Source: a virus. Taken from it: 64,000 nucleotides of DNA. The translations under genes were made by a program, and so were the position numbers. This document shows positions 34,561-64,000 of this stretch, one piece after another. The notes below the pieces were generated by a model, which made no database searches, had not been told where the DNA came from, and was given only the letters and a program-made list of their open reading frames with translations. The stretch is taken from positions 21,717 through 85,716 of IMG/VR virus record IMGVR_UViG_3300034073_003245; one strand, given 5' to 3'. The stretch's first letter is position 1; the number at the start of each line of letters is the position of its first letter.

Positions 34561-34669
34561 ATCTGTAAATTAGCCAAATAATTTAAAGATTTATCAATAT
34601 CTTCAAATTGATACTTCCCTTCGTGCCGGTTTTTATGACCTATTATTTTTGAAGTCACCGAGGAGTCGT

Positions 34670-37600
34670 ATGTCATATAGCAACATTGAGTTCAAGTCAA
34701 ACCCGGGCCAATTCAACATTGACGAGGCCCAGGGCATCGTTGAGTGTTTCGTGGCGGGCATTGGCAACAAAGACTCGGTAGGCGACGTTCTTGTTCCTGG
34801 AGCATTTTCAGAAAGCCTTAAGAGAAGAAAGCCTCGCGTTGTGTGGGGCCACAACTGGAATGACCCAATTGGAAAAGTCCTAGAGATTTATGAGGTTGGC
34901 CCTGGAGACGCCAGACTCCCACAGAAGATGCGCCAGGCCGGAATCGGCGGTCTTTACGCCAAAGTGCAATTCAACCTGAATTCGGAGAAGGGTCGCGAGG
35001 CTTTTGCCAACGTGGCTTTCTTCGGCCATGAGCAAGAGTGGTCAATTGGATACAAGACCATTGACTCAATCCATGACCCAGGCGTCAAGGCGAACATCCT
35101 CAAGGAAGTTGAACTTTACGAAGTTTCGCCAGTTCTTCACGGCGCCAACCAGTTGACTGGCACAATTTCTGTAAAGTCAGACGATCTGGCCCTGGCCGAT
35201 GCAGAAAAGGGTTGGGGCATGGGGATGCCACACCACATGATGGGCATGAAGCCGCAGCAACCACAGGTCATCGTTATTAGAGAAGACGACGATGATGATG
35301 ACAAGTACGAGTCTGAGAAGCCGATTTTTGCCGAGGGGCTCGCTCAGCCGATTGGCGGACAACAGCGACGTATGCTTGAAAAAGAAATCGCTGAAAGAAC
35401 CGGTTCTCAAATCCGCCTAATTGAGGCGACCGAAAACACGGCAGTTTTTTCAAGAATGATGCCTACTGGCGGAACAATGGTTTTCCGCGTCAGTTATCAC
35501 ACCCCTGACAATTTCAGAACTTTTATGTTTGGCAAGCCGGAACTTGCAGACGGCCAAGTGACAATGCCGGGTGCGACGCAAAAGCCAAGAACGGTTGTTC
35601 CCTCCCAGATGCCATCAATGCCCATGCAGGTTAAGCCCGGCTATTCGCAAGACGAAATGGGGATGTATTCATTCCCTAAGTCTGGTGAGACGGAAAAGTC
35701 TGATCTAGGTTCCCAGATTCAGGCCATTGAGGACATCCTCATGGCTGAAACTGAGGAAAAAGTTGGCAGAACCCTCAATAGAAGAAATCTTTCAAAACTG
35801 AAGTCAGTCATGGAGAGCCTTCAAGAAATAATTGCTTCTGCTGAAAAGGAAATGGACACAAAGGGGTACGTGATCCCGGTTCCATTGGAAGAGGCATTTA
35901 GCACCAAGCAACTTCTAGATCCAATCTTTGACTATCACAGAGTTGAGACTCAAGTTACAGAAGACGGAATTGTCATTACTTCCGGAGTTACACAGGAATT
36001 CATAGAGGCAATTGGCGTTGCCGAAAAAGCGCTCGGGCGCACGCTGAGGGGCGGCCCGGGAAAAGCGCGCCGCGCCGGGCGCGGCCTGGCGGCACGCTTT
36101 GATCCAAACGCCTGGGACGGAGACGGAGACGGCTTAGTTCAGGAAGGTACACCTTTCCAGCGTCCTGCGATTCCAGGAGTTAACGACCGTTCAACTCGCG
36201 GAAGAGTTGACCCAGCAGCAGCAACACAGGCCTGGCAAACAGGTCAGCGCGGAATGGCTTCGCGCGGCGGTCGCCGTATCACCTTGGGCAATGCGAACCC
36301 GAATAGTTTGGGCCCGATGTACGGCTATGACCCAGAAGAGCAGGACTTCAGTTCTGAATCTTATTGGGAAGAAGTTTTTACAGACAGCGACGATATGTTG
36401 CCGTTTTTTCAGGAATGGCTTGAAAAGGAAAAAGGCAAAGAAGCGCTCTGGCATGAACTATCAGATGATGAATTTGAAGAATTGGTTGATAAGTGGAAGT
36501 CAAGCGATGCGTTTGAAAAAGACGTAAAACGCTACGCTGAAATTCAGGCCGATGAAGGAATAGAAGATGGCGAAGCATTTAGGTCCCTATTCAAGCGGTC
36601 AACGCTTGACAAAGTGTGGGTAAGAAACGAACCCAAAGAACGCGGGATGGCATCTCGCGCCGATGTTTTGACAGATCTGGCCATAGATAGCGACGTATCT
36701 GAAGCAATAGATTCTATTGTCAGAGAAGTGCTTGTTTATTCTGGGACAGGGGATAAAGACAAGATTTCTGACTTGGTTTCAGACGCGGCCAGAGAGATTC
36801 TTGACTCCATTAATTTTGACTCCATCAAAGACAGCCCTGGTAAAGCAGTTTCTGATTTCAGAAAAAAACTTGTGGAAACACTGTCAGACGAGGACTTTTT
36901 GCGCGAAGCAATGAGGAAAAAGGACGCAATTAATGAGTTTGTTGATGGTTTATACGACGCCGTAAATTCTGCTTTTGAAAAATATGAAGATCATCTCAAA
37001 AAAACTGGTGGAGACTTTGAAGACTTTGCCGATTTGAAATTTGAACTCCTTGATGACCTTGACGGAAGAGTTTCTAAAATTCTCAATTCATCGCGCAAAT
37101 TATTTGGCGAACTAAAATCAAAGAAAACTGAAGACGAATATAAGTCCAGAGATGAACGTAGAAAGTTAATTGCCTCAATACGGGCAGGGGAACTTCCTAA
37201 AGACTGGAGAGGTAGAGAGACAGAAGACCTAGTGGATGGTCGTGTTGCGTATGAGGAAGCACTTGAAGAAATTGTAAACAACAGCCCAGATGCAGACATT
37301 GACGAGTTGATGTCTGACTATATTGAGGCCGTCAGAGAGGGCGCTAGGAAAAATCCGGACAACAGAGTCCTCGCAGTCCTTGCTGATGTGTACGGAGATG
37401 ATGGGAAAATAACAGACGAAGAACTCAAGAGAAACCTGCAGGACGTAGCAAGACGCTCTCCATTTAACAAAAAGAGGGGCAGAAATGAGAAAGAAGTTCT
37501 TCGCGGCATGGCATCTCGCGGTGGCGGGCGTCCTGGCGACCCGATAACCGACCAAGAGCGCAATAAGGTCAAGAGAGACAGCACTGCCGTATCAATGTTC

Positions 37601-40600
37601 AAAGAGTCAACAGACTACGACAATGCTTTTAATTCTTGGCAAAAAGCCAACCCTGGAAAGTCGGAAAAAGACTTTGAAAAGTCGCCGGAATTTACTGATG
37701 CACTGGTTGAGTTTGACAGATACCTGCTTGACCAAGCATCAAAGGCCACGGGGATTCGCTACAGCAGAACCATGCCATATAGCGGTGGTCCAATTTCTCT
37801 TGAGCAAATGACTGCTAAGCAAATTCTCAGAGACAGAATGTCTGGGATGTCTCTTGATGATGTCGCTGAAAAAATGAATCTGTCTCGCGAGAAAGTCAGA
37901 TCGCTTGAGGCTCAGGAAGTTATGCGCCTGAGAGATGATGCTTCACCTAGAGAAATACTTGCCTACAGAACAATGGGCTTGAGCCTTGAAGACACAGGTC
38001 GTCTCTTTGGCATGCGCCCAGAGGACGTGCGCAAAGCAGAAGCCAAAGAGATGGCCGACATCCGCAAGGATATGGACGACAACAAACTTATTGAACTCCG
38101 GATGATGGGCTTTTCTCTTGATGATCTCGCAGAAATCACCGGAGCCAGTAGGGAAGATCTTCGTAAGCGGGAAATACAAAGACTAAGAAGAGGCCCAGAA
38201 GACGGTGGCGGCGCGCGCGGAATGGCTAGCCGTGGAAGGTCAGAAGACTTTGACGGCGGGTATGACGAGGCGTACGGTCCGACACCCCCCATAACAAGAA
38301 GGCCGCCGGTCGGAGAATGGGATGTCCTCGTGGGTGAAGAAGCCTACGAGAGAGAAGATGCCAGCAGGCAGCAACGCGGCATGGCAAGCCAAAACGTTAG
38401 ACCAAACGCCGGTCTAGTTAAGTACTCAACAGATCTATTGAATGAAAAACTTGAAGACCTGGACTCAGATCCTCAACCAGGAATGGCCGGAGCGACCCTT
38501 GATAAGACATGGGCAGAGGGAGTGCTTGATGGGCTTCGTGACGGCAGACTTTCATCTGATGACGCAATCAACATCATTGGCCTAGCAGGCAACGATGTCT
38601 TTAACGAAGGCAAGAAGCCAGAAGGCGAAAGAAACCAGGCACTCATTGATTCACGTATCAAGTTGAGCAAGAGGCTAAGAAGGTCTGTCGTTGATTCAAT
38701 GTCCGAGGGCGACATGGAGGAATACCAGGCAAATCGCCGCAGAAGAATGGGTGCTGATCGTGGAATGAGAAGCACTCTTTCTGAGGCAAACAGAAGGAGG
38801 GATGCCGGCCTTACTCCAGGCACTGGTGATCCATCCCCGGGAACACGTGGCCAAAGAGTGGCATCAAGTGGCGGCGAGTACAAGCCGAACACAGAAGAAA
38901 GAGATGCTGCGATTATTCAAAGGCTGAGAGACATAGGCCTTAGCGATGATGAAATTTCCGAATTGACTGGAATAGACAATCTTCCAGACGCAGAAAGAGG
39001 AATGGCATCAAGAGAAATAAAACTAAACAATCGGCAGATTGATAACGCCTTATCAGAACTTGACAATTTGACAGATGATCGTGGTTATGAAGATTGGGAA
39101 TCAATCCAAAAACTGCGTCAGCAATTGTCGGACGCCAAAGACAACAACGGAGTTTTTTCTCCTTCTGAGAGGGATATTGAGGACTATCTTGACGAACTAG
39201 AAAAACTTGAAGATGCAGGATTTGACGACTGGGAAGGTCTGTCAATGATCCGTTCTATTATTAGTGATTCTAGGGGCGAACGTGGCATGCGCTCAAGAAA
39301 CTCCGAAATAGATATGACCCTTGAGGAATACGGTCAACTTCTTGACACTCTTGACAAATATGTTGACGGAAGCGCGGGCGAGGGAGTCGGCGCTGATGAC
39401 GACATGCGTGTTCTTCAGCAGGTAATGGACAAACTTGAGGCGAGCCAAAACGCCAATGACGCAGTTGAACTAACGTCTGACGAAATTTCTGACTATCTAG
39501 ACAGTCTTAAGAATATCCGCGACAACGGTCCAATGGAGGACGCGACTTCTGGCGACAAGGCTAATATCAACAAGTTGATCTCAGCCCTTGAGGGGGCTAG
39601 GGATTCACGGGATGGATCCTACGAGACGCCGGCATTAAGGCGTTCCGGCGCAAGAATTAGCGACCAGCAGGGAAGGGCGTTTAGGTCATCAAGCGGAACT
39701 GTTAACCCTCACGAAAAAATTGAGATGACCCTCAACGGCGATGATATCTCAGCAATGGTTGAAGACATTGACGCGCTTCTGAAACAAACCCCAAATTCCG
39801 CAGCACTTAAGGCTGCTAGAGAAAAGTTCTCAAAGGCCAAGACTGGTGAAAAGATCACCATGGATAAAGACGAGTACGAGCAACTCTACAAAGACATTGA
39901 GACAGCAAAAACGCAGGGCAATAGGGTCACTTCTGAACTCGCATCACTTCTTGACCAGGCAGCAGAAAGCAAAGATGGCAAGTACGTTGACCCCAACCTA
40001 AGAGGACGCGGCGGTATGGCGTCTCGTAATAATGGGGCTCCTTCAGACATTACAGAGGCAATGCAGAAGGAATACATCTTCTGGGCCAGAAATAACCCAA
40101 ATCTTTTTGTCGCTCAAAGAATCCTGAAGAAGTACGACGATAACGATGGACAATTGTCCGCTAGGGACTGGAGAGCGCTTGACACTCTCTACACGAACTT
40201 AAGCCCACGTGGAGGCGGTCGTCGCTCTGGAATGAGATCTCGTTCGGGCCGTGATGCGGAAATAGAGAAACAGAAAAAAATAGACGCCGAAAGAATGCGA
40301 TCAGGCTCCACCACGGGATCGGAGAGCGAAAGAATTGGCAGATCTTCAGAGGGAACTGGAGTCTCAGCCAGTGGTCTTGGAGACATTGGCATTCGTGGTG
40401 AAGGCGCAAGCCAGAGGACAGAAACACCTGGCCCTTCAGAGAAGAAATTTACAGGGAAGTCATTCAATGAAGTCCAACCAGATAACTGGGAATCTCTTGA
40501 CATTGAGGAGAAGTACGACTGGCTATTCAGCAATGGCAAGCCGGAGGTTTCAGGAATGTCGCCGGCGGCCTATGAGGGCGCTCTCAAGAAGTTAATTGCG

Positions 40601-41566
40601 GAAGAAGAGGCTCTTGAAAAGGCCAATACCCGCAGAGCCAGAAGAGCAGGGGCGGGCCAAGATCGCGGAATGGCATCACGTGGAAGAACCCCGAGTCAAA
40701 ATGCCACCTATGACTGGGTTAACAATTTAAGCAGCCCTACTGAAAAATGGCTTGAAGAAAAGAATAAAGCAACCCTTGATTCGTATAAGGAATGGAAAAA
40801 AAACCTGGGAACTATAACCCCAGGAGGACAAGCGCCAGAGATGCTCAGGGGCATGTCTTCTCGCTCCGGTGGTTCTGGTCGCCAGGGAAGAACAATGATT
40901 ACCGACGAAGCAACATACTTCGGTGAGATTGAGAAGAACCTCCCAGTTGAGATAAGAAAAGCAACAGAAGCAAAAGAATCAAAAATTTCCCAAGCATTAT
41001 CGCTGCTGCAGGACATTATCAAGAAACAAGAAGCATCAAAGACCGGTTCAAGAAGAACCAATACGGGAAGCATTTTTGTAACAGCCGACGAGGCTGATCG
41101 TATTCTTGATGCGCTTATGTGGGTTATTGATAGACAGGTCCAAAGAAATGGCAACGAAGAAAGAATATCTGCTTTTGCAAAACTGGTTGACAAGATGGCA
41201 CAAGCCGCCATGTCAACTTTTGTAAACAGAGACACATCAGAAATCGGTTCTCGCACTACAAAAAGAACCAACAGCCGAGGAAAAGAAGTTGAGATCCCCG
41301 ATGCCGGTATAGGCCTGCCAAGAGGAATGGCTTCTAGTTCTAATTTAGGCGGTTACAATAGACGCAGAACACAAGCGGCGGACAAAAAATTTGAAGACAT
41401 CCTTCGTGAGGAAGTTGAAACAAAATTGACTCCAGATCAGCAGAAAAGATACAGCAAACTATACGAAGCAGAAATGGCCAAGTACGGCGGCGCTGGGCTG
41501 GCATTAAAGAGACAAGAAAAAAAAGAAATACACCAAAGAATCATGAAAGAAATTCTCGGCCAGTAA
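34670..41566 (+). CDS. Prohead protease fused to a giant RGMASR-repeat polyprotein
   Basis: A 2,298-residue protein; the ATG at 34670 follows GAGGAG, so a longer TTG-led frame is rejected. Residues 1-165 are an HK97-type (S78) prohead protease with H61 (VVWGHNWNDPIGK), S125 (EWSIGYK) and E151 (LYEVSPVLHGAN). About residues 365-475 are helical (KVGRTLNRRNLSKLKSVM). At 478 it has an acidic loop DPNAWDGDGDGLVQEGT. From there on the motif RGMASR or a variant recurs 13 times (residues 527, 658, 945, 1183, 1236, 1364, 1443, 1538, 1781, 1853, 1999, 2060, 2218), separating 50-290-residue, mostly acidic helical segments. Ordinary prohead proteases are about 200-400 residues. This one may mature itself and neighbours; that is inference. 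Confidence 0.9.
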   Translation: MSYSNIEFKSNPGQFNIDEAQGIVECFVAGIGNKDSVGDVLVPGAFSESLKRRKPRVVWGHNWNDPIGKVLEIYEVGPGDARLPQKMRQAGIGGLYAKVQFNLNSEKGREAFANVAFFGHEQEWSIGYKTIDSIHDPGVKANILKEVELYEVSPVLHGANQLTGTISVKSDDLALADAEKGWGMGMPHHMMGMKPQQPQVIVIREDDDDDDKYESEKPIFAEGLAQPIGGQQRRMLEKEIAERTGSQIRLIEATENTAVFSRMMPTGGTMVFRVSYHTPDNFRTFMFGKPELADGQVTMPGATQKPRTVVPSQMPSMPMQVKPGYSQDEMGMYSFPKSGETEKSDLGSQIQAIEDILMAETEEKVGRTLNRRNLSKLKSVMESLQEIIASAEKEMDTKGYVIPVPLEEAFSTKQLLDPIFDYHRVETQVTEDGIVITSGVTQEFIEAIGVAEKALGRTLRGGPGKARRAGRGLAARFDPNAWDGDGDGLVQEGTPFQRPAIPGVNDRSTRGRVDPAAATQAWQTGQRGMASRGGRRITLGNANPNSLGPMYGYDPEEQDFSSESYWEEVFTDSDDMLPFFQEWLEKEKGKEALWHELSDDEFEELVDKWKSSDAFEKDVKRYAEIQADEGIEDGEAFRSLFKRSTLDKVWVRNEPKERGMASRADVLTDLAIDSDVSEAIDSIVREVLVYSGTGDKDKISDLVSDAAREILDSINFDSIKDSPGKAVSDFRKKLVETLSDEDFLREAMRKKDAINEFVDGLYDAVNSAFEKYEDHLKKTGGDFEDFADLKFELLDDLDGRVSKILNSSRKLFGELKSKKTEDEYKSRDERRKLIASIRAGELPKDWRGRETEDLVDGRVAYEEALEEIVNNSPDADIDELMSDYIEAVREGARKNPDNRVLAVLADVYGDDGKITDEELKRNLQDVARRSPFNKKRGRNEKEVLRGMASRGGGRPGDPITDQERNKVKRDSTAVSMFKESTDYDNAFNSWQKANPGKSEKDFEKSPEFTDALVEFDRYLLDQASKATGIRYSRTMPYSGGPISLEQMTAKQILRDRMSGMSLDDVAEKMNLSREKVRSLEAQEVMRLRDDASPREILAYRTMGLSLEDTGRLFGMRPEDVRKAEAKEMADIRKDMDDNKLIELRMMGFSLDDLAEITGASREDLRKREIQRLRRGPEDGGGARGMASRGRSEDFDGGYDEAYGPTPPITRRPPVGEWDVLVGEEAYEREDASRQQRGMASQNVRPNAGLVKYSTDLLNEKLEDLDSDPQPGMAGATLDKTWAEGVLDGLRDGRLSSDDAINIIGLAGNDVFNEGKKPEGERNQALIDSRIKLSKRLRRSVVDSMSEGDMEEYQANRRRRMGADRGMRSTLSEANRRRDAGLTPGTGDPSPGTRGQRVASSGGEYKPNTEERDAAIIQRLRDIGLSDDEISELTGIDNLPDAERGMASREIKLNNRQIDNALSELDNLTDDRGYEDWESIQKLRQQLSDAKDNNGVFSPSERDIEDYLDELEKLEDAGFDDWEGLSMIRSIISDSRGERGMRSRNSEIDMTLEEYGQLLDTLDKYVDGSAGEGVGADDDMRVLQQVMDKLEASQNANDAVELTSDEISDYLDSLKNIRDNGPMEDATSGDKANINKLISALEGARDSRDGSYETPALRRSGARISDQQGRAFRSSSGTVNPHEKIEMTLNGDDISAMVEDIDALLKQTPNSAALKAAREKFSKAKTGEKITMDKDEYEQLYKDIETAKTQGNRVTSELASLLDQAAESKDGKYVDPNLRGRGGMASRNNGAPSDITEAMQKEYIFWARNNPNLFVAQRILKKYDDNDGQLSARDWRALDTLYTNLSPRGGGRRSGMRSRSGRDAEIEKQKKIDAERMRSGSTTGSESERIGRSSEGTGVSASGLGDIGIRGEGASQRTETPGPSEKKFTGKSFNEVQPDNWESLDIEEKYDWLFSNGKPEVSGMSPAAYEGALKKLIAEEEALEKANTRRARRAGAGQDRGMASRGRTPSQNATYDWVNNLSSPTEKWLEEKNKATLDSYKEWKKNLGTITPGGQAPEMLRGMSSRSGGSGRQGRTMITDEATYFGEIEKNLPVEIRKATEAKESKISQALSLLQDIIKKQEASKTGSRRTNTGSIFVTADEADRILDALMWVIDRQVQRNGNEERISAFAKLVDKMAQAAMSTFVNRDTSEIGSRTTKRTNSRGKEVEIPDAGIGLPRGMASSSNLGGYNRRRTQAADKKFEDILREEVETKLTPDQQKRYSKLYEAEMAKYGGAGLALKRQEKKEIHQRIMKEILGQ
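36101..36265 (+). repeat. Acidic-loop plus RGMASR module, copy 1
   Basis: This part of the giant protease protein encodes DPNAWDGDGDGLVQEGTP, then FQRPAIPGVNDRSTRG, an Ala-rich spacer and RGMASR. Copies are at 52600-52842 and 56437-56679 in two other proteins. Copies 1 and 2 keep the amino acids but differ at many third bases, so selection acts on the protein. The D-x-D-x-D-G spacing looks like a calcium-binding loop. Copy 3 is more diverged and its cleavage-like motif reads RGMASF. Confidence 0.8.
37808..38192 (+). repeat. Three tandem helix-turn-helix-like repeats in the polyprotein
   Basis: Residues about 1047-1174 contain three aligned units of about 37 residues: MSGMSLDDVAEKMNLSREKV, MGLSLEDTGRLFGMRPEDV and MMGFSLDDLAEITGASREDL, each followed by a charged helix. 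Each unit has the helix-turn-helix look of sigma-factor region 4 or small regulators. The segment lies between the RGMASR sites at residues 945 and 1183, so cleavage would release it as one piece. A DNA-binding role is inferred only. Confidence 0.6.
39014..40010 (+). repeat. Tandem helical repeats in the polyprotein
   Basis: Between RGMASR sites at residues 1443 and 1781 the protein holds repeated helical units with matched phrases: NRQIDNALSELDNLTDDRG, then DIEDYLDELEKLEDAGFDD; TLEEYGQLLDTLDKYVDG, then DEISDYLDSLKNIRDNGPM; and DISAMVEDIDALLKQTPNS, then DEYEQLYKDIETAKTQGN. The pattern is a pair of helices with a Ser/Thr-x-x-E/D-x-I/Y cap. They look like copies of one small helical domain. Function unknown. 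Confidence 0.55.
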
Positions 41567-46100: not shown

Positions 46101-48850
46101 TTTTTAGACGCGAAGCGCCAGCAGACACAACCCCAACAGTTGACATAACCGATGCTGATGTTGCCGGAATTGCGGAATATCAAGAGTCAATAAGAAAGCC
46201 AGAAGAAAACGCGGCTATATCCGAAGCGCTTTCCTCACCTCCGCGAACATCCATCATTTTTGGGCCGGATGGTTCTGAGTTGTTGTCTGTAATTTTGGAT
46301 GACGCCGAGATTTCAAGGGCATTCAAAGAAAACGGAATGACTCCTCCGCCCGGAATTAAAACTGCTTCAAAAGAAATAGATAGATCTCGCTTGATTATTT
46401 CTGGAATTGATAGATCTGAAGTTCGCAAAGAAATAGTTGTTGACGTTGAGTTGGACATACCGGATGATGCAGAAGAATATGAGATGCGCGACATTTCAAT
46501 TGCCTCACCAATAACAGACGAGATGGCCAACAGGGGAATGGCGTCCAGGGGGCGCATAACAAGTGCTGCCGGAATGCTTGCGTCAAAAAGAGCGCGTAAA
46601 CTTCTTGAAAAGGCCGGTATTGACCCAGAAAGAGCAGAAACCGTTCAGGTTGTTGCTCAATTGGGAATTGCCTTTTCTATCGGTGGGCCTCCCGCTGTAG
46701 CAGCACAATTGCTACGAATGGGCTCCCGTGATGCTGCGCTAGCAGGCCTAGACAGGGCTGTTGAGAAGGGCTGGATTGAGCCGTCAACCGCTTTAAGAAT
46801 ACGCTCAATGATTATTGACAGAATTGCGCCAGATGGCATTCCGCAAGACGTAAAGGACGCAGTTGAAGCGTCAAAAGAAAAAGTTTGGACCCCAGAAAAT
46901 AGACAAAAGGCCCAGGAGTTGGCAGACGCTGCTCACGAAAGGGTGATGGAACTCGGTGAAAGGGCTTCTGAATTTGCATCTGATGTCAGGGAAAAGGCAT
47001 CAGAAGTGGCGGAAAGAGCGAAAGAAAGAGCATCAGATACAGCGGATAGAGCGAGAGATGCTGCTGGCGCTGTTGGTTCAAGACTGGGTGAAAGATTCAG
47101 AAGAAGAAGGGGTCAAGAACAGGAAATAACACCTTCCCTGTTAGACGATCCATTTTCTTCCACCCCTTCTGGTGACCCATTCCCCCTTGCCAACCCCTGG
47201 GATGACAGGTTTAAATCTCTGTATTTCAACGCCTTTACAAAGAATGTTTCTTCATTTGATAGCAAGCAACTCGGAGAAAAAAGCAGAAAGAAAAAAGTCA
47301 ACCTGCTTTTGAGCCAGGGACAAAAGGCGGCCTTTACAAAATCACAAAACGGCAAAACTCAAGTCGTTCTTCCGCCGGGCAAAGTAAAAGTTACATCAAG
47401 AAACGAAGATGGCTCTATCAACGCAGAAATGAAGAGTCAGGAAAATACCGAGTCGTATTTGAAAAATGTTGAAAAGAAATTTTCAGATTTGGAAAAAAAC
47501 GACAGTTTTGATGTTAGATCTCGCGCCAAAGAAACTTCAGAATACGCAAAAAGAAAAAGAGTTGAATATTCCGTACAGAAGTACATGCCTCCAAAATCTT
47601 CTGAAGCATCAAGAATGTCTCTTGAAAAAACAAATAAAATTATTGAAGACATAAACTCTTCTGGAATACCTGTTTTTAGAATCACTGATGCGTCAGAAAA
47701 CAAGGAGACTATTTTTAAAGGTATTAGCGTTTTGCGCGTTATGGCAGATGAGATCATAAATACATCTGATATTGGCAAAGAGATTATTGCTATTCTTTCA
47801 AGAAATTCAGATACGCAAATTTACGAAATGATGAGAAAATTTGCCATTGACGCCCACAATTCCCTTGACAAAAGAACGCGCATATCTGTCACGAAAACAG
47901 AACTAAATCAGATCGCAAAAAACGGAAGAATTACAGTCGGTGAAAAGCCGCCTGCAGTTGAAAATTTGGCAAAGATAAAAAACATCATGAGGGGTGTTGC
48001 TAACGACTCCTACTCCCCACAGGTCGTAAATGTTGAACTGTCGCCATCATGGGTTACTGACGAAATTGAACAAAGTCTTTATATTGGTGGGACAAGAGTC
48101 GGCTCTGAAGAGTTTTACAACTCAGACAATAGAATTAAGATAGTTCTTAGGGCAGAAAACGCTCAAAGAATCGGATACGCGATCAAGCCACACGATGTTT
48201 CCCCGATCTATATCTCGCTGGCAGAAGACAACGAGGACGTAATTGTTAACGCTATTTTTGGCAATATTTCCGATGACGAAAACGAATCAGCGAAACAGAT
48301 AGCCACCGTGCTCCAGGCCATGTATGACAAGAATTACTCCAATGTTTTTGGAAGTAAAGGTTCATCAAAAGTTGATGCTTTTATAGTTGGGGATATAAGC
48401 CTTGATGACATTGAGCACGTCAAGGTGCCAAACACGGTATTCGGCTATAGAGGGAGAATACCGGCTACAACGCCAATTTTTGGCGAAAAGAACATGAGGG
48501 ACGCCATGAGACAGGCTGGAGTTCCAGAAGAAAAAATAACAAAGTTCTTCTCCCAAGACGGAACCATTGGTGGTGGTTTTAGCCCGAGGCACATTTCTTA
48601 TTTGCTGGAAATCGCGGAGGCTCAAGAGATGAAAGAAAAACTCATATCTTCTGGATTTCCTGATGTTGTTTTCACCAACAAAGACGGGATTGACATGCTT
48701 TCCGAAGACACGTGGGGCAGGAGCGGAATGACTGGCAGCAAGAAGGGCAAGGCAAAACTTGCAGAACTTGCCATGAACGAGTTAAGTGAAATAATGAAAA
48801 AACTGTCAGAGTCAAAGCCTTCTGAGCAAAAGAAGGAGAGCGTGGCGTGA
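43142..48850 (+). CDS. Giant polyprotein with HExxH metallopeptidase domain
   Basis: A 1,902-residue protein. Residues C194 and C212 bracket a CPPGTPAANQF motif that recurs in a neighbour. A metallopeptidase domain covers about 420-700: H544-E-M-V-H548 in GIHEMVHVQQF, with E666 or E670 (YETLAELGTAR) as a possible third ligand. A Pro-rich linker follows (SPSGPLSPDPTAPRPSTPSG). One RGMASR site is at residue 1131. Around 1265-1325 lies an amphipathic, LEA-like repeat (ASEFASDVREKASEVAERAK). The C-terminal third (about 1360-1902) looks globular and could hold another enzyme, ending GDISLDDIEHVKVP-like sequence. No signal peptide. Probably carried in the virion. Confidence 0.8.
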   Translation: MTGFNQRKIRHYANSLLEPNHAKNVDFRAILFRESLKASSSKDVLDATYSIKAASPFQGDSDNKKRSPAQKAKSPYNIEYGLVYDPNAKWAPGKYFKHYVTEEERKQAMQLDNPNPNWGWLDGTEGSNTMPVSNSKGDLKVVYEKITQKPRGDDFEEKGLLGRSIGERNPAGKLGTRAARAFGVVVDALGKFRCPPGTPAANQFTNERGENCFSISGVAQDLIANRLIGFLEGKPKSDSKLVSSLLSAGVSYSRIRDAYRSDGWRGLASLASAALEGGGLVGDEYDDGSYRTSVIQKVLERAKETQNTVSRTRAKSDERRKMVSDLLAKYGIPETGDNSDMVQLVDAMTRDGVLHPLTKGSDLFMGGTLASHQDELLEKIMGDADFAEYKRMKTAGETGPLTDIADMILERDRQYMRGTISGILQMALRNPDSYGKVKFSLKPERDKSGTHAVSFWWGTKSFEGHQIVINPYAVAKDIMPNLKKGESILVTATGGDSQEDHWKAIAAKLGDAERMSIWARTHMTDLAATVGNGWEDFGAEVGIHEMVHVQQFEAMIPMVLQMNGHPDARSYTPDQINDALRTLSNWQIGISMGEIANDPDLTKEVFGLDIYDLVEKRLDALAGSYSAITQQEALEALQAANELSDESEKEDAMFLFAQSVATATYETLAELGTAREMGLIEGEDVDEALSFMSPPKYAPISVPSSPSGPLSPDPTAPRPSTPSGAPTPIRPGSPGPAVPDLVDSTVSTEEVEMMWGLRPRPGRKEKTYDIVRNRRGKVPTLILDGRMTREDVEDHIFGEVGVNGKRTGGVLGQIRSIRNMSKNDTPDKPTARERRRILNALLDSLPLDEKEIERIGLDTGPLTGEDREKLEQTIAILRNAVYEYREKAEKAREAYRNYQGVSTEYDYDDYDANYRALQRLDNEARMWDALANRIGRGLAASLDDIIDIRDNGPYPPSTDRGRRRAAVPGRTFDVDGMEIDRDTGEIVFRREAPADTTPTVDITDADVAGIAEYQESIRKPEENAAISEALSSPPRTSIIFGPDGSELLSVILDDAEISRAFKENGMTPPPGIKTASKEIDRSRLIISGIDRSEVRKEIVVDVELDIPDDAEEYEMRDISIASPITDEMANRGMASRGRITSAAGMLASKRARKLLEKAGIDPERAETVQVVAQLGIAFSIGGPPAVAAQLLRMGSRDAALAGLDRAVEKGWIEPSTALRIRSMIIDRIAPDGIPQDVKDAVEASKEKVWTPENRQKAQELADAAHERVMELGERASEFASDVREKASEVAERAKERASDTADRARDAAGAVGSRLGERFRRRRGQEQEITPSLLDDPFSSTPSGDPFPLANPWDDRFKSLYFNAFTKNVSSFDSKQLGEKSRKKKVNLLLSQGQKAAFTKSQNGKTQVVLPPGKVKVTSRNEDGSINAEMKSQENTESYLKNVEKKFSDLEKNDSFDVRSRAKETSEYAKRKRVEYSVQKYMPPKSSEASRMSLEKTNKIIEDINSSGIPVFRITDASENKETIFKGISVLRVMADEIINTSDIGKEIIAILSRNSDTQIYEMMRKFAIDAHNSLDKRTRISVTKTELNQIAKNGRITVGEKPPAVENLAKIKNIMRGVANDSYSPQVVNVELSPSWVTDEIEQSLYIGGTRVGSEEFYNSDNRIKIVLRAENAQRIGYAIKPHDVSPIYISLAEDNEDVIVNAIFGNISDDENESAKQIATVLQAMYDKNYSNVFGSKGSSKVDAFIVGDISLDDIEHVKVPNTVFGYRGRIPATTPIFGEKNMRDAMRQAGVPEEKITKFFSQDGTIGGGFSPRHISYLLEIAEAQEMKEKLISSGFPDVVFTNKDGIDMLSEDTWGRSGMTGSKKGKAKLAELAMNELSEIMKKLSESKPSEQKKESVA

Positions 48851-51862: not shown

Positions 51863-54800
51863 AACAAATGGCAGTTCTTTTTGACGCAATCCGCAACGAG
51901 CGTTTTGCCATCGCTGTAAAGTCAAATGGATCCATTGAATATTTTGGCGCTGAAGGTCAGGCAAGGGAGTGGACTAACTGGGCCAACTCCGATGTAAGAA
52001 ATAAGTCTGCAGAATTGCCAATGGGGATTGTTATAGGCCCATATAAGAATGTTTCTGAATTTGAAATTAATCAGGCTATTAGCAATCTTGGCTACTCTGA
52101 AATCACTAATGTCAAAGAAGTTTTTTCCTCAAAGTCGTACAGAAACGCTGGATCAGTCAAGGTTTCAAATACATCGCGTGTTCCCTCAGTTTACGACACG
52201 CCCGTCTACCACTTTCCAGACTCAAAGTACGCAAATGCTGTTAATTACAAAGCACTCGCTTTTAGAGCAAACATTAAGCAGGCAAGCGCCCTGTATGAAG
52301 CAAGGGTAAATAACTATGTGTTTAATGCAGATAAAAACCACTTCATTGCAAAGCCTGGAAGCCTAGAAGAAAAGACGCTGCGCCCAAGATTTGAATCCTC
52401 AATGACAAGAGGAATTGAGAGAAGACTTGGCAGGAAAATTCTTAGAAGCATGGAAGAAATTCCAGTTAGAACCAAGACTGGAATTATCCACGAACTTGAA
52501 ACAAAGTCTCTTGACTTTGAGTTCAAATCAATCGGCCAAAGAATAGGCGGCGGAACTAGAGGCGCTAGAAGGGCGGCAAGATTTGCTTCAGCAACTTTTG
52601 ACCCCAATGCATGGGACGGTGATGGCGACGGGATAGTGCAAGAGGGAACGCCATTCCAAAGACCAGCAATTCCTGGTGTTAATGATCGCTCAACCCGTGG
52701 CAATGTTGACGTTTCTGCGGCAACTAGGGCATGGGAAAACTCGGGTAGTTCGGCAGAAAGAGGCTCAATCGCCAGAACTCCATCAAGAGCAAGAACGGAG
52801 TCTGCTCAAGTCCAACAGGTTGAGCGCGGCATGGCATCTCGCGCCGAAAGGGCCAAAAAGAAATCTAAGCGCAGAGCAGTACCAGGAAAAGACAAGGTTT
52901 CGGAAACAGACGGTCAATGGTGGGCTCAACTCGGTGACGAGCAGAGAAAAACCGTTGTTGAAAACTTGAGAAATAGGCTCACTGACCTTGAGGCCCTAGC
53001 CAAGGGGTCAAAGAAGGGGGCATACGGTCTCCTGACAAGCGATGGTGGCTGGTGGCAGGGATGGCTTGATGCAAACAGGGGCGTAAAAGACGGAGACGGT
53101 AAGCCATTTGAATTCGGGAGCAAGATCAGAGGTGCCGCACTTGCCGACCTCGGAACCGAAATCATGGACATCATTGATGACATTGACGCAAATAAAAATC
53201 TTGATGACAACAAGAAGGCGCAAGAGAAGCAAAAATATCAAAGGCTTCTTGACGATATAAAAACATTGGCTCAGATGGATGAGTCTGATGACTTTTCACT
53301 TCTTGAACATCTGCACCCAGCATCAAGAAGGGCAGGGCTTGGAGATGCGGGTAAAAGCGCAACAGGTTACAAAAAAGTTGACGGCAAAGTTCCTGCTGGC
53401 CTTGGAGACCCCAAAACTGTTTCTAGTATTCATGGAAGAACTGGCGGCGCTGTTGTTGACGAAACAAAAGCAAAAGTCAAGAAGCGCGATCCAAAACTTA
53501 AGAACTTGGTGAGACGCCTAAGCGAAGAAAATCCAGAAAGAGCGCGCAGAAGAGCGCAGAGAAGAGCGAGAAGGGCTGGCGCTAACGTCGGCGGATTCAC
53601 TGTAGATAGAGAAAATACAAAAGAGAAGACAAAGAGAAGAATAAGAAAAGCAAAAAGACAACTTGCTAGAAGAAAAACAAGATCAAATATTGAAGCAATT
53701 GCGCGTGATGCTGCAAAAAACAAACTCAAAGCGGTTGGTATTAGAAAAGGTCCAGATGGAAATCAGATTGAAACAAGCGGCTACGTTTCAAGGGATGCTG
53801 ATGGAAAAATAATTTTCACCAAAGAAGGCGTGAGTGCAGTTTTTGAAGCACTTTCTATCTATAGAAGAGAAAAGAAACCAAAGTCTTCAAAAGAAAATAG
53901 AGAAGCAACATTTATTGCCTCTTTGTGGGACGCTATTGGTTTTAATGGAACACCACATCTAGTAAAAGATGAAGAAATTCCTTTGCTTGTTAATGCCGGA
54001 TGGAAGCCGATCAGGAGAGGTCACGGGGAAGAAAGATGGGCTGACGAATGGCTTTACGACCCAGAAAGGTTTGTTACTGGCCAGAAAGGCGAGGCTGCTG
54101 GCCCTGGCGAATACTGGGCGACACAAGATGGCGGCTGGAGGGAAAGTTCATATTGGGGTGGCCCTAGTGAAAAGGGCGGAACATTCGCATGGCTGTCGCC
54201 TTCTGCAAAAACCATCAAACAGGATAAATTGAGACAAGAAAGGCAGAACGCCAACAAACTTGACACTTTTTCTGATGGATTAATAAAGATACTGGGCGGC
54301 AAAGGCGATCAGATTGACAAAGATTCCCTATTGATGGAATATGACCGCGCGCGCTCGGGAGATGGCGAGTTTGCATCGGGATCGCAAATCTGGGATACCG
54401 AAATGGGTCAAGTTTATTCGCAGTTGTTTGAACTTCTGCGCAATGGCGACCTGACAACATCGCAACTTCAAAATGCGCTAGACGGATTGAGTCAGGCCGC
54501 CAAGCATGAAAACTATCTAGCACCTATCCTTGGATATGACGCTATTGAGGTTGATGACAGAGTTTTGGTTATGAACAGGGCTGCTCTTGTTGCTCTTGAC
54601 AGACCAGTTTCAATCAATGAAGCGCTTGAAATCGGCAAAAACATTGAACCGCCGCAAGTTCCAAGCCCCCCCGCGCAAAGCAGGGCGCCGAGAGTTAATG
54701 GACGCCTACAGGTTGACAGCCTGAAATTCGTTGGCGGGCCACTTGGTTCACAGGCGGCCGGGCAGTATGAAGATCCGGCAACAGGTGAGCGCTTCTACGT

Positions 54801-55393: not shown

Positions 55394-55726
55394 ATGGACG
55401 GCAACAGAATCGGAGACATGGAGAAAGCACATATTGAGTTTTCTGTTATCGCTCAATACCCACCATTTTCAATATCGCTCAAAAAACAGCGCCCATACCT
55501 TGAGGACCTCAATAAGGAAGAAGCCCGAATTGTTTCGGAGTGGAAAGAGGGGAATCCTGACGCATTCAGGAGGATGTTCTCCACTCTTGAGGCTAAGTGG
55601 CAAGACGACATAGATGAAGCGCGCCTGTACCAGAAGCGTTTTAATTCACCAACAGAGGCCTGGGAATATTACGTCAAAGAAAACAGTCTTGACGAAATGG
55701 ACAGGGACGTTCCACTCCGTCCATAG
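55394..55726 (+). CDS. Small unknown protein of the head island
   Basis: A 110-residue protein starting one base after the previous stop. It is helical and rich in aromatic residues (KKQRPYLEDLNKEEARIVSE, then WKEGNPDAFRRMFSTLEAKW, and FNSPTEAWEYYVKENSLDEM). It lies between the kinase-like and Zeta-like polyproteins. No motif known. Its place suggests an accessory or partner protein. Confidence 0.6.
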   Translation: MDGNRIGDMEKAHIEFSVIAQYPPFSISLKKQRPYLEDLNKEEARIVSEWKEGNPDAFRRMFSTLEAKWQDDIDEARLYQKRFNSPTEAWEYYVKENSLDEMDRDVPLRP

Positions 55727-55728
55727 TT

Positions 55729-58065
55729 ATGCATACAGAACTCCAGAAAAAAGTAGCAGCCCTGCGAGGAGCCATTTCACTTGGCTGCACGGGGGCACAT
55801 AAGTCGGCTTCTGGAGACTGGTTACCGTGTTCAACGCCGGGAGAATTGCTGCAAGCGGCTTTCGGTGACGAGATAAAGTCACGCATCACCCCAGGCGATA
55901 TTGAGTCATGGCGTTCAAGGAGAAAAAAGCGCGGCAAGAGAAGAAAAAGACGCGATAACTGGGAGAAACTGGGCGAACGCGGCGTGGCAGGCATTGACCG
56001 CATATCAACTGGCCTAGTATCTGCTGTCACCGGTGGTTCAAGGCCCCCAATTACCAATGGTTATGTTGCTCCGGCAGGAATGTCTACAAAATCTGCTCAA
56101 CAGGCGTTCAATCCCCGAGACGACGACGACGATGTTTACTTTGACATTGAGTCTGCGAGAAAAAGATCAAGGCAACTCGGGTGTATAGGCGTCAGTAGGC
56201 GCGTGTCTAAGTCTGGCAAAACCGTGTGGATGCCGTGTACAAATATGTCCGACTACGCAAGACTAACTGGTTCAACTGCGCTAGGCAGAAGACATATCCA
56301 AAATGCAGCGCGCGGAGTAGTTAGAACCGTAGTGAGGGAAGAACTCAAAAGACGCAAAAAAAGCATTTATGAAGAACTTTCTAACAAGTCAATAGGAAGA
56401 AGGATCGGCAGAGCAGCCGGCAGAGTTGAGCCATTTGACCCAAATGCGATTGATGGGGATGAGGACGGCGTAGTTCAAGATGGAACGCCATTTGAGCGTC
56501 CAGCAACACCATCCGCGCCAAAGATTGAAAATCCGGTTGAAAGAGATGCAACAGAGAATGATATTGATTCAGTGAGGAACTGGATTGAAAAATCGTCCAC
56601 AGATGACCGCGAAGCACTTCGTGGTGACCCAATTGAAATGTTTGACGCCATCCCAGGGCAGAGAGGCATGGCCTCTTTTTCGGTTGGCGACAGAGGGTCA
56701 AGACGTTCAACAAAAAGACCAAGACCACAGCAAAAACCGCAAAAAATCAGCGGAATGGAGAACCGGGAAGCCAGCCAAACTAACCCGTTTAGGAATATGG
56801 GTGGAAGGGCTATGGGTCAGATCATACGTGGTCTTGTAAAGCCTGAAAACAAGGGCAAAAAAGATAGGACTGCATACATTATCGGAGGAAACATCGGCTC
56901 CGGAAAAACTACAGTCCTTGAGGGGCACCTAGTACCGCAGGGTCTTGTGCCGGGAGTTGAGGAAGCAGCAACCATAGACCCCGACTTCATTAAACTTGGG
57001 CTGCGTGGATATGACGACGGCGCAGGCGCAAGAATGGTGCATCGCGACTCACAAAAGGCGACAGACAAGACAATCGTTGACGCGGCCGCTGAAGGTGCTG
57101 ATCTGGTCATAACCGGGAGTGGTGCGAGTCGCCAAAGACAGCACATAAGAGAAGCAAAGGCGCGCGGCGAAAGGGTTGTTGGGCACTATGTCCACGTTCC
57201 CAAAGAAGAAGCGGCAAAAAGAATTAGATCAAGAGCACAGAGGGACGGACGCCAGATAGACGACAACACTGGGCATATGGCTAGAAGTATTCCGCAAATG
57301 GTTTCTTCCGCAGTTAATGCTGGCGATATGGACGAATTTTATCTCTGGGACAACGATGTGCCTGAAGGTGGAACACCAAGACTTATAGCATCAAGCGTTG
57401 ACGGAGAACTATCAATCATTGACCAAGACAAATTTGACGAATTCATGATGGGCAATGAAATAATAAGTGCAAAGCGGACAAGGGGAATGGCGTCTAGGGC
57501 TACTTCGCTCAACGGGGAAGAGACAGCAAAGGCGCTTAAGGACATGGGTCTTGAGGTATCAATGGTCGGGGATATAATAGTAGAACTTCCCAAAGGTACG
57601 GCTATTAGGAAATACTACGAAGAATACGTTTTGCCACGCTTAGTAGTGCAGTTCGGAAGAACTCATACGCATGCTTCACGTAAAGATAAACCAGGTGTCC
57701 CAATCGTTGAGGACGTAAATAAACTTCTTGGATTGGGGATTGACAAAAGGGAAATCTCGGATAAAAGATATCGTAAAAGAATGAAGGAAATTATTCTTTC
57801 TGATGATCGCCAGGTTTTTATTCCCCTGTTCTCTAACGCTCCGATCAATGGCCCAAGGGGCGAACAAAGATTTGGGGACCTGGACATCGCGGATCAAGGA
57901 ATTTCTATTGACATAGACAGCGATTCCATAGTCTTAGATAGCATTGCCAAAAAAGTTGGTGTGTCAAGAGAAGATATAGACTCATTAATTGCCGGGGGGA
58001 TTTCTGTTGGGCAACTGCAAGAAATGTCAATAGACGAAATAAAAGATTATCTAAAATTAATCTAA
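55729..58065 (+). CDS. Polyprotein with Zeta-toxin-like kinase domain
   Basis: A 778-residue protein, starting two bases after the previous stop. Two cysteine pairs occur: C20-x13-C34 (LGCTGAHKSASGDWLPC) and C152-x17-C170 (LGCIGVSRRVSKSGK to WMPC). The acidic loop DPNAIDGDEDGVVQDGT is at 237, with RGMASF at 312 and RGMASR at 585. Between them a P-loop domain has GGNIGSGKTT at 386-395, then ATIDPDFIK, ARMVHRDSQKATDKTIVDAA and VGHYVHVPKEEAAKRIRSRA. This is the order of the Zeta/PezT kinase family, which phosphorylates UDP-sugars in toxins. No partner antitoxin is seen beside it. A role as a cargo enzyme is inferred. Confidence 0.8.
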   Translation: MHTELQKKVAALRGAISLGCTGAHKSASGDWLPCSTPGELLQAAFGDEIKSRITPGDIESWRSRRKKRGKRRKRRDNWEKLGERGVAGIDRISTGLVSAVTGGSRPPITNGYVAPAGMSTKSAQQAFNPRDDDDDVYFDIESARKRSRQLGCIGVSRRVSKSGKTVWMPCTNMSDYARLTGSTALGRRHIQNAARGVVRTVVREELKRRKKSIYEELSNKSIGRRIGRAAGRVEPFDPNAIDGDEDGVVQDGTPFERPATPSAPKIENPVERDATENDIDSVRNWIEKSSTDDREALRGDPIEMFDAIPGQRGMASFSVGDRGSRRSTKRPRPQQKPQKISGMENREASQTNPFRNMGGRAMGQIIRGLVKPENKGKKDRTAYIIGGNIGSGKTTVLEGHLVPQGLVPGVEEAATIDPDFIKLGLRGYDDGAGARMVHRDSQKATDKTIVDAAAEGADLVITGSGASRQRQHIREAKARGERVVGHYVHVPKEEAAKRIRSRAQRDGRQIDDNTGHMARSIPQMVSSAVNAGDMDEFYLWDNDVPEGGTPRLIASSVDGELSIIDQDKFDEFMMGNEIISAKRTRGMASRATSLNGEETAKALKDMGLEVSMVGDIIVELPKGTAIRKYYEEYVLPRLVVQFGRTHTHASRKDKPGVPIVEDVNKLLGLGIDKREISDKRYRKRMKEIILSDDRQVFIPLFSNAPINGPRGEQRFGDLDIADQGISIDIDSDSIVLDSIAKKVGVSREDIDSLIAGGISVGQLQEMSIDEIKDYLKLI
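56437..56679 (+). repeat. Acidic-loop plus RGMAS module, copy 3
   Basis: The third, more diverged module lies in the Zeta-like polyprotein: DPNAIDGDEDGVVQDGTP, FERPATPSAPK and, after an acidic helical spacer, QRGMASF. A full RGMASR at 57481-57498 comes after the kinase domain, so the two sites bracket it. Confidence 0.7.
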
Positions 58066-58191: not shown

Positions 58192-59526
58192 ATGTCAGAT
58201 CAAGCAAGACTAGGCGAACTTCAGGCGGCGCTCCGCCAGAAGATGGCAGACAACAAGGCCATCGCGGATTCGTTCCGCGTTGAGGATGGCACCGTTGTTG
58301 TGTCAACGCAGCAGAAGAGCGCCTTTGACAAGAACATGCAGGACATCAAGGAAATCAAGGGCCTCATTGAGGGCATTGAGGCCATGAACACCGTGGAGCA
58401 GTGGGGCTCAGAGGCCCCAGCAGAGTCAGTCGCCGCTGCGGCTGCCGCTGGCTACTCGGTGAAGGGTCTTGACCGTTCCGCTTCGGTTGGCGAACTGTTC
58501 CTTGCCTCGGCAGAGTTCAAGTCGCTGAACGGCGGTCGTAACGGCGCAAACATGCCTTCGCCATTCCAGTTGGGCGCTTCGCTCACCACGCACGGCGCTT
58601 ACAACGTGAAGGACGTCTACTCGGCAATTCCATCAGGTACGCCAGGATCGTTCGGCACCATCCAGCGTGACCCAATCGTCGTTCCTCCAATGCGAGTGAA
58701 GAGAGTGCGCGACCTGTTCCCAACCCGCACCACCACGGCTGCGGTGATTGAGTACTTCCGCATGCTCGGCTTCACCACCGCTGGTGGCGGCACGAACAAT
58801 GCTGCGACAGTCGCTGAGCGCAACTCGGGCAACACGGCGTTTGCCGCGAAGCCACAGTCGGGAATGGTGTTTGAGGGCCATCAGGCTCCAGTGCGCACGA
58901 TTGCTCACTGGGAGGCTGCGCACCGCAACGTCCTGGCCGACGAGCCACAACTTCGGTCAATCATTGACAACGAGTTGATGTACGGCCTGCGCCTGCAGGA
59001 AGATGCCCAGATCCTCTCTGGCGACGGCACTGGTGAGAACCTGACCGGCGTTCTTGAGACCTCAGGCATCCAGGAGTACAACTGGTCATCAGGCGCCACT
59101 CTTCCAGTGGCGGACACTAAGGCTGATGCGATCCGTCGTGCGGCTACCCTCTCGTTCCTGGCTTACTACGAGCCATCAGGCGTGGTTCTCCACCCGAACG
59201 ACTGGGAAGACATTGAGTTGACCAAGGACTCGCAGGGCCAGTACCTGGTCGCCGTGTCCGTGGCACTCGGTGGCGAGCCTCGCGTGTGGAGACTGCCAGT
59301 CGTTGAGACCCCAGCAATCCCAGAGGGAACCGCTCTCGTCGGTGCCTTCGGTACGGGCGCGCAACTCTACGACCGCGAGCAGGCGAGCATCCGCATCTCC
59401 GAGCAGCACTCAGACTTCTTCGTCCGCAACGCCATCGTGGTGCTCGCTGAGCAGCGCCTGGCCCTCGCGGTGAAGCGTCCAGAGTCGTTCGTGAAGGTGA
59501 ACTTTGACGGAGCACCAACCGTCTGA
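58192..59526 (+). CDS. Major capsid protein (HK97 fold)
   Basis: A 444-residue protein. About the first 100 residues are helical and charged (MQDIKEIKGLIEGIEAMN), like a delta/scaffold domain removed by the prohead protease. The core shows HK97-fold landmarks: VVPPMRVKRVRDLFPTRTT, KPQSGMVFEGHQAPVRTIAH and EAAHRNVLADEPQLRSIIDN, then DAQILSGDGTGENLTGVLE. The C-terminus includes FFVRNAIVVLAEQRLALAVK. The gene is more GC-rich than its neighbours and I saw no ATA codon in frame, fitting high expression. RGMASR is not present. AGGAG precedes the ATG and a strong terminator follows. Confidence 0.93.
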   Translation: MSDQARLGELQAALRQKMADNKAIADSFRVEDGTVVVSTQQKSAFDKNMQDIKEIKGLIEGIEAMNTVEQWGSEAPAESVAAAAAAGYSVKGLDRSASVGELFLASAEFKSLNGGRNGANMPSPFQLGASLTTHGAYNVKDVYSAIPSGTPGSFGTIQRDPIVVPPMRVKRVRDLFPTRTTTAAVIEYFRMLGFTTAGGGTNNAATVAERNSGNTAFAAKPQSGMVFEGHQAPVRTIAHWEAAHRNVLADEPQLRSIIDNELMYGLRLQEDAQILSGDGTGENLTGVLETSGIQEYNWSSGATLPVADTKADAIRRAATLSFLAYYEPSGVVLHPNDWEDIELTKDSQGQYLVAVSVALGGEPRVWRLPVVETPAIPEGTALVGAFGTGAQLYDREQASIRISEQHSDFFVRNAIVVLAEQRLALAVKRPESFVKVNFDGAPTV

Positions 59527-63526: not shown

Positions 63527-63598
63527 GCCCCCGTCGTCTACTGGTTAGGACCCGACTCTTATAAAGTCGTTAAGGTGGTTCAATTCCACCCGGGGGTA
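63527..63598 (+). tRNA. tRNA with anticodon TAT (Ile, codon ATA)
   Basis: A full cloverleaf can be drawn. Acceptor GCCCCCG pairs with CGGGGGT and discriminator A598. The D stem is GTCT/GGAC, and the anticodon stem CGACT/AGTCG has loop CTTATAA (anticodon TAT at 63560-63562). The T arm GGTGG/CCACC carries TTCAATT. No CCA is encoded. Anticodon TAT reads the isoleucine codon ATA, common in many phage genes here but not seen in the capsid gene. The body looks partly Glu/Asp-like, so charging with Ile is not certain. It lies on the strand opposite its neighbours. Confidence 0.8.
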
Positions 63599-64000
63599 CT
63601 AGTCCACAATTTGGACGTGAAAACCCATTTTTAAGAGCCGCTCAATGACCTCTGATTCATCATACTCTCCTAGGTAGTAGGTTTCATTGAGAGTTTTGTA
63701 GAGCATCGCCGGATAACTGCGGTCTCTTAGGACATTCATTGCCCCCTGTGGGTAAACACTGAGGCGACCGAAGTTCACTCTTTTCTTTTCCCCGTACTTA
63801 TAGGGGAGAGAAACAAGCGAAACCATCGGGGAAGTGTCTAGATGATCTTTGGGAATTTCAACATGCGTCACCGTAAGGCACTCATTTACCGTGTCGCCCT
63901 GCTCCACGAAAGCCTTGGCTAAATCAAGTCCTTTTGTTTTTGCGAGGTCGTTGGAACAGTAGCCTTCGGCAATCATGGAAATAGCGTCTACTTCCCAGTA
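63599..64000 (-). CDS. Conserved-looking protein, partial at right edge
   Basis: The frame is open from the window edge to a TAG at 63599. An internal ATG at 63976 would give 125 residues, but the frame continues upstream without a stop (YWEVDAIS before it), so the start probably lies outside the window. The sequence (MIAEGYCSNDLAKTKGLDLA, EQGDTVNECLTVTHVEI, then YPAMLYKTLNETYYLGEYD) is not one I recognise. It ends next to the tRNA. Confidence 0.6.
   Translation of the reverse strand, partial: YWEVDAISMIAEGYCSNDLAKTKGLDLAKAFVEQGDTVNECLTVTHVEIPKDHLDTSPMVSLVSLPYKYGEKKRVNFGRLSVYPQGAMNVLRDRSYPAMLYKTLNETYYLGEYDESEVIERLLKMGFHVQIVD

What the first reader, a model, noticed from the sequence alone, without database searches (positions are those of the whole stretch)
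55729..58065. Zeta-toxin-like kinase inside a head-linked polyprotein, flanked by RGMAS sites
The P-loop GGNIGSGKTT, the DPDFIK segment and the VHVPKEEAAKRI region are typical of Zeta/PezT kinases. The domain is bracketed by RGMASF at residue 312 and RGMASR at 585, so cutting would free it. Zeta enzymes usually pair with an Epsilon antitoxin, and none is seen. It may be used at infection to stop the host rather than as a plasmid addiction toxin.
Basis: partly seen in the sequence, partly recalled or inferred. Interest (0 to 1): 0.72.

Follow-up and report, generated by a model that had tools for sequence, protein, structure and literature searches.

The report
Phage head protein with Zeta-like kinase
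A phage head-region protein carries a Zeta-toxin-like kinase as an exchangeable module, bracketed by short repeated sites that look like cutting points for the phage's own head protease and preceded by a small acidic helical gene that may restrain it, which suggests an enzyme packed in the virus particle and released into the host.

Summary
ORF 55729-58065 (778 aa), just upstream of the major capsid gene, holds a Zeta_toxin domain (Pfam 1.7e-10) whose model (pLDDT 93) best matches solved zeta and PezT (Z 17.1, 16.8). RGMAS lies at residues 312 and 585; it occurs 12 times in the window, only in four head-region ORFs (0.008 expected). Most of 19 phages compared have their own repeated motif of this kind. 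In 9 of 10 zeta-bearing phages a motif learned from the phage's other head genes recurs in the linker before the kinase; swapped motifs match in 12 of 90 cases. This supports, without proving, lineage-specific cutting by the S78 prohead protease. The N-terminal ~220 aa often stands alone in relatives, so the kinase is accessory cargo. Zeta residues K46, D67, R158 and R171 are kept; E116, needed for zeta toxicity, is Thr, so UDP-GlcNAc as substrate is doubtful. Zeta kinases in phage MuF polyvalent proteins are published; the non-MuF carrier, motif system and partner are new.

The parts
55729..58065 (+). Carrier-cargo head-region protein, 778 aa
   Evidence: ORF; follows the small ORF by 2 nt and precedes the major capsid gene by 126 nt
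55729..56394 (+). N-terminal core (residues 1-222), two CxG...W[LM]PC elements (Pfam DUF3721 1.6e-10, best stretch residues 15-36; second element at 151-170)
   Evidence: homologous core stands alone as about 145-400 aa proteins directly upstream of the capsid gene in many relatives
56434..56505 (+). FDPNAIDGDEDGVVQDGTPFERPA motif (236-259), shared with ORFs 34649 and 51859; the first RGMAS follows 27-53 residues later in each
56662..56676 (+). RGMAS site 1 (residues 312-316), proposed cut after Ser316
56812..57447 (+). Zeta-like kinase domain (362-573): K393, D419, T462 (zeta E116 position), R502, R508
   Evidence: Pfam; HMM range; model and fold search; residue table
57481..57495 (+). RGMAS site 2 (residues 585-589), proposed cut after Ser589; predicted freed fragment 317-589, 273 aa, 29.8 kDa, pI 9.5
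57496..58062 (+). C-terminal region (590-778); a related stretch lies in a different carrier ORF in L003 (1.7e-12), so modules move between carriers
55394..55726 (+). Small acidic protein, 110 aa, pI 4.9, predicted all-helical (pLDDT 90); candidate inhibitor or chaperone of the kinase
34649..41566 (+). S78 prohead protease (29-173) fused to a 2305-aa polyprotein with 8 RGMAS plus RGMRS/RGMSS and looser variants; proposed processing enzyme
46532..46546 (+). RGMAS in ORF 43142-48850
52825..52839 (+). RGMAS in ORF 51859-55392
58192..59526 (+). Major capsid protein, context
   Evidence: PHROG 10, 1.2e-62
32491..34560 (+). Portal protein, context
   Evidence: PHROG 2662, 3e-68

Best explanation
The ORF encodes a head-associated carrier protein: an N-terminal core conserved next to the capsid gene, a DGDxDG linker motif, and a cargo module that here is a zeta-fold kinase. 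The S78 prohead protease encoded in the same cluster most likely clips the RGMAS sites during head maturation, leaving a ~30 kDa kinase fragment inside the head that leaves with the DNA and phosphorylates a substrate in the new host. Until then the kinase may be kept silent by its fused context and by the small acidic helical protein encoded just upstream. Shown: the zeta fold, the accessory nature of the kinase, the lineage-specific repetition and placement of the motif, the co-occurrence of the small gene. Inferred: cutting at the motif, packaging, ejection, inhibition. The substrate is unknown; UDP-GlcNAc is possible but not favoured because E116 is replaced.
For: Fold: model pLDDT 93; best solved matches zeta 1gvn Z 17.1 and 3q8x 16.7, PezT 16.8, AvrRxo1 14.9, over 197-210 residues; family profile to zeta 2.7e-13, next best Pnkp1 1.4e-5. 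Head context: terminase, portal, S78 protease, capsid. Cargo nature: the core occurs without the kinase in 24 of 48 dereplicated relatives. Sites: strongly repeated own motif in most of 19 phages, e.g. RGMxS 15, GLRS 17, GMRS 37, GLSxG 20, FSSG 18, GSKxxT 20 copies, against about 0.1-0.4 expected; motifs learned from other genes recur in the pre-kinase linker in 9/10, swapped motifs 12/90, Fisher 1.4e-6; a downstream site is seen in phages whose protein continues after the kinase (window, G008, G012) and not where the kinase ends the protein; related proteases tend to share motif types. Precedent: a giant-phage prohead protease cuts many head and ejection proteins at a short motif (SPN3US gp245, AXE; PMC10052503). 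Small gene; acidic pI 4.9 against the fragment's pI 9.5.
Against: No virion proteomics. The capsid protein has no RGMAS and its own maturation site could not be placed by alignment to HK97. In G008 the learned motif is absent from the pre-kinase linker (a GFRS is there instead), and the motifs of G011 (SRSxR) and G010 (GSKS) fit the consensus poorly. Several phages show only weak repetition (G009, G011, G014, G018, G020, G023). G005 continues for 540 aa after the kinase with no clear downstream site found. E116 is Thr462. Two zeta-bearing relatives (L014 and L016 = L162) lack the small gene. The zeta/small pattern reflects few independent events on the tree.
Confidence: 0.5

Rival explanations
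1. The RGMAS-type repeats are not protease sites but short linker or docking peptides, for example binding scaffold or capsid, and the kinase is packaged as part of the intact protein.
For: No cut has been observed; the capsid protein lacks the motif; proteases 70-83% identical to the window's go with rather different motifs.
Against: Sites lie outside the recognised S78 and zeta domains, flank the kinase, and follow the kinase only where more protein follows; this fits cutting better than docking. The motif appears in four different ORFs that otherwise share mainly one linker element.
Confidence: 0.25
2. The domain is a zeta-fold kinase acting on nucleic acid ends or nucleotides (RNA repair, counter-defence) rather than a cell-wall or growth toxin. 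This concerns the substrate and can hold together with the cargo model.
For: Polynucleotide kinases are the next fold group (4jt2 Z 14.7; Pnkp1 profile 1.4e-5). The E116 position is Q or D in many relatives and T here.
Against: Coverage including the N-terminal helix is found only with zeta, PezT and AvrRxo1 (197-210 residues; PNK 141-158).
Confidence: 0.25
3. A canonical toxin-antitoxin pair used for phage or prophage maintenance: zeta toxin plus the upstream small protein as antitoxin.
For: Gene order small-then-kinase, 2 nt apart, acidic helical partner, co-occurrence 21 of 23.
Against: The kinase is fused to a head-region core and lies between portal and capsid genes; zeta E116 is replaced; fold search of the partner finds nothing above Z 5.2.
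Confidence: 0.12
4. A degenerate kinase kept for a structural role.
For: The E116 position is Thr in the window and its nearest kin.
Against: The D67 and R158 positions are invariant in all 40 sequences and the K46 position is Lys in 34 of the 35 that cover it, which argues for retained catalysis.
Confidence: 0.1

Closest known systems
Zeta/PezT toxins (Pfam PF06414; 1gvn, 3q8x, 2p5t)
   Same: Fold over about 200 residues; Walker A Lys, catalytic Asp67, Arg158 and Arg171 positions
   Different: E116 position is Thr, T118 is Ser, two-residue insert after GSG, fused to a head-region carrier, no Epsilon homologue found
Phage polyvalent proteins with zeta-like kinase fused to MuF (Iyer et al. 2017, PMC5512222)
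   Same: Multi-domain head-neighbourhood phage proteins with a zeta-like kinase, proposed to act at DNA entry
   Different: No MuF domain in this family (0 of 15 records searched; distant zeta relatives G037-G041 have it); the carrier is a DUF3721-containing core; repeated lineage-specific sites
Cyanophage PSS2 minor head protein (GQ334450)
   Same: Head protein of an isolated phage with a 26% identical kinase region
   Different: One 1499-aa protein; the window's N-terminal core has no match in the phage collection
SPN3US prohead protease processing of head and ejection proteins (PMC10052503)
   Same: One protease cuts many head and ejected proteins at a short motif
   Different: There the motif is AXE and cuts remove propeptides; here the sites separate cargo modules and the motif changes between phages
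AvrRxo1-ORF1/ORF2 (4z8q)
   Same: Zeta-fold kinase with a second, partner protein; fold match Z 14.9
   Different: A bacterial type III effector and its partner, not a phage head protein

Membership tests
Zeta_toxin kinase family (PF06414) | Pfam model above its gathering score | tested here: met
   41.1 bits against 22.3
Zeta_toxin kinase family (PF06414) | Zeta/PezT fold | tested here: met
   Z 17.1, rmsd 2.9, 199 aligned to 1gvn_B
Zeta_toxin kinase family (PF06414) | Walker A Lys46, Asp67, Arg158, Arg171 | tested here: met
   K393, D419, R502, R508 by profile alignment
UDP-GlcNAc-phosphorylating zeta toxin | Glu116, needed for toxicity (PMC6356619) | tested here: not met
   T462; the column holds Q 17, T 8, D 8, E 6, M 1
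UDP-GlcNAc-phosphorylating zeta toxin | Phosphorylation of UDP-GlcNAc | not testable with these tools
   needs an assay
Epsilon/zeta toxin-antitoxin system | Epsilon antitoxin adjacent | tested here: inconclusive
   PF08998 not found in the record but the control rang nowhere; a small helical gene of unknown family is adjacent
Polyvalent protein of phages | Multi-domain protein encoded with portal/terminase genes | tested here: met
Polyvalent protein of phages | Packaged in the capsid and delivered with DNA | not testable with these tools
   needs virion proteomics
MuF polyvalent protein | MuF domain | tested here: not met
   no MuF in the Pfam scan of the ORF or in 15 records of its family
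Substrate of an S78 prohead protease | S78 protease in the same gene cluster | tested here: met
   PF04586 2e-11
Substrate of an S78 prohead protease | Observed cleavage at the site | not testable with these tools
   needs virion mass spectrometry or an in vitro assay

The most novel reading that the evidence does not exclude
A virion enzyme-delivery system in which head-associated carrier proteins hold interchangeable enzymatic cargoes separated by protease sites whose sequence evolves with the phage's own prohead protease, with a dedicated small inhibitor protecting the producing cell from the kinase cargo.
Probability: 0.3. Interest if true: 0.78.

Novelty: new variant of a known kind. Interest (0 to 1): 0.56.

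Why it matters
If the motif is the protease site, maturation sites for a large family of uncultured phages can be read straight from sequence, which tells what protein fragments each phage likely packs and injects. The small upstream gene offers a testable, undescribed partner for zeta-fold kinases, and the lost E116 suggests that phage-delivered zeta kinases may have substrates other than UDP-GlcNAc.

Tried and rejected
Capsid maturation site: capsid proteins were aligned with HK97 gp5 to see whether its known cut lines up with a GLxR/LSS element or GRNGANM; the alignment is ambiguous in the N-arm, so no claim is made. HipA-like kinase in ORF 51859-55392 (read by eye): profile searches in PDB and Pfam found nothing meaningful; left unconfirmed. 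Small protein: Pfam and PHROGs give only scattered chance-level matches; fold search best Z 5.2 (SCIN-B), not informative, Epsilon not listed. N-terminal core in isolated phages: no match. PADLOC: no match. A scan of bacterial genomes found only two relatives of the kinase. The small gene was first suspected to follow a kinase-like domain of ORF 51859 rather than zeta; rejected because L005, L125, L128 and L132 have the small gene and zeta without a match to that domain. Literature searches for this motif system or phage family found nothing specific, within an open-access library only.

Full report
Observation. The ORF at 55729-58065 is 778 aa and contains the motifs as described, at the positions described. 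Pfam assigns Zeta_toxin well above its cut-off. The window is part of an 85.7 kb virus record. Around the ORF lie a gene that reads as a terminase, a portal gene, an S78 prohead protease fused to a 2305-aa polyprotein, and the major capsid gene. The best isolated capsid matches are phages of Brevibacterium and Gordonia, so an actinobacterial host is likely but not shown.

Fold and active site. A 40-sequence alignment from environmental viral contigs gave a model with mean pLDDT 93. The best solved matches are zeta and PezT (Z about 17), then AvrRxo1 and polynucleotide kinases (Z about 14.7-14.9, the latter over fewer residues). A profile of the family finds zeta 1gvn at 2.7e-13 and Pnkp1 at 1.4e-5. 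By that alignment Lys46, Asp67, Arg158 and Arg171 of zeta are Lys393, Asp419, Arg502 and Arg508. Glu116 is Thr462, and Thr118 is Ser464. In zeta, alanine at K46, D67, E116, R158 or R171 removes toxicity (PMC6356619). The wider phage family mostly has Q, D or E at the E116 place; Thr is typical of the window's nearest kin. A working kinase is likely; UDP-GlcNAc as substrate is uncertain.

Carrier and cargo. The first ~220 residues, with two CxG...WxPC elements (Pfam DUF3721), occur next to the capsid gene throughout the relatives. Among 48 dereplicated relatives 24 have this core without kinase and without the small gene; one further apparent case (L167) is a frameshifted copy of a kinase-bearing gene. 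Three ORFs of the window share a FDPNAxDGDxDGxVQxGTPFxRPA element, each followed by its first RGMAS 27-53 residues later. The region after the second RGMAS matches a stretch in another carrier of relative L003. The kinase is thus one exchangeable module.

Repeated sites. RGMAS occurs 12 times in four head-region ORFs and nowhere else in the record, with 0.008 expected. Enrichment was repeated for 19 phages (window included) whose protease and head genes were fetched. Most have a strongly enriched short motif of their own, such as GLRSxT, GMRSR (37 GMRS copies), GLSSG, RLSSG, RFSSG, FASxS or GSKSxT; in several (G009, G011, G014, G018, G020, G023) the signal is weaker. The shared pattern is roughly G/R, a hydrophobic residue, any residue, Ser; G010 and G011 depart from it. 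For ten phages with a kinase, motifs learned from all other head genes were sought in the linker before the kinase: nine had at least one of their own top three, whereas motifs of other phages matched in 12 of 90 swaps (Fisher 1.4e-6, with the caveats that phages are related and linker limits were set by hand). The window, G008 and G012 also have a site after the kinase; where the kinase ends the protein there is none. G005 continues long after the kinase without a clear site. Closely related proteases tend to share motif types. This is what protease sites would show, but docking peptides remain possible.

Small upstream gene. A 110-aa ORF ends 2 nt before the kinase ORF. Its homologues (conserved YPPF and DDLEEARLYQKRYG) lie at the same place in 21 of 23 dereplicated kinase-bearing relatives; the two exceptions are L014 and L162 (= L016). 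It is absent from the 24 without kinase. L080, which groups loosely with the kinase-bearing side, lacks both. The tree implies few independent events, so the association is suggestive only. The protein is predicted helical (pLDDT 90) and acidic (pI 4.9), while the predicted kinase fragment is basic (pI 9.5). No known family or fold was recognised.

Known work. Zeta-like kinases fused to MuF in phages were reported with the idea that they weaken the wall at entry (PMC5512222). MuF is present in distant zeta relatives here (G037-G041) but in none of the 15 records searched from the window's own family. The present family is therefore a different carrier. Multi-protein head processing by one protease at a short motif is established for SPN3US (PMC10052503).

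Verdict. Literature coverage was limited to open papers.

Noticed in passing
window 34649-41566: S78 prohead protease fused to a 2305-aa polyprotein with about 15 RGMAS-type sites; in relatives this ORF reaches 4805 aa.
   Followed up: partly
window 51859-55392, residues 882-1167: By eye a HipA-like kinase pattern (AWLANWDAxLNxN, IDxGGS in the family); not confirmed by PDB or Pfam profile searches.
   Followed up: partly
window 43142-48850: By eye a zincin-like IHEMVHVQQF motif and a possible ADP-ribosyltransferase-like C-terminus; untested.
   Followed up: no
L179, L181, L185, L186: Environmental phage proteins with two zeta-like domains in tandem; MuF was found in the record of L179 (G039).
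   Followed up: no
L014 and L016/L162: Kinase-bearing giant carriers that lack the small upstream gene.
   Followed up: no
L080: Core protein of 830 aa with neither kinase nor the small gene; its cargo was not identified.
   Followed up: no
window 63527-63599: tRNA-Ile with anticodon TAT next to an ORF at 61086-63131 that reads by eye like a ribonucleotide reductase.
   Followed up: no
L167: Apparent frameshift splits the kinase from its carrier relative to the near-identical L168.
   Followed up: no
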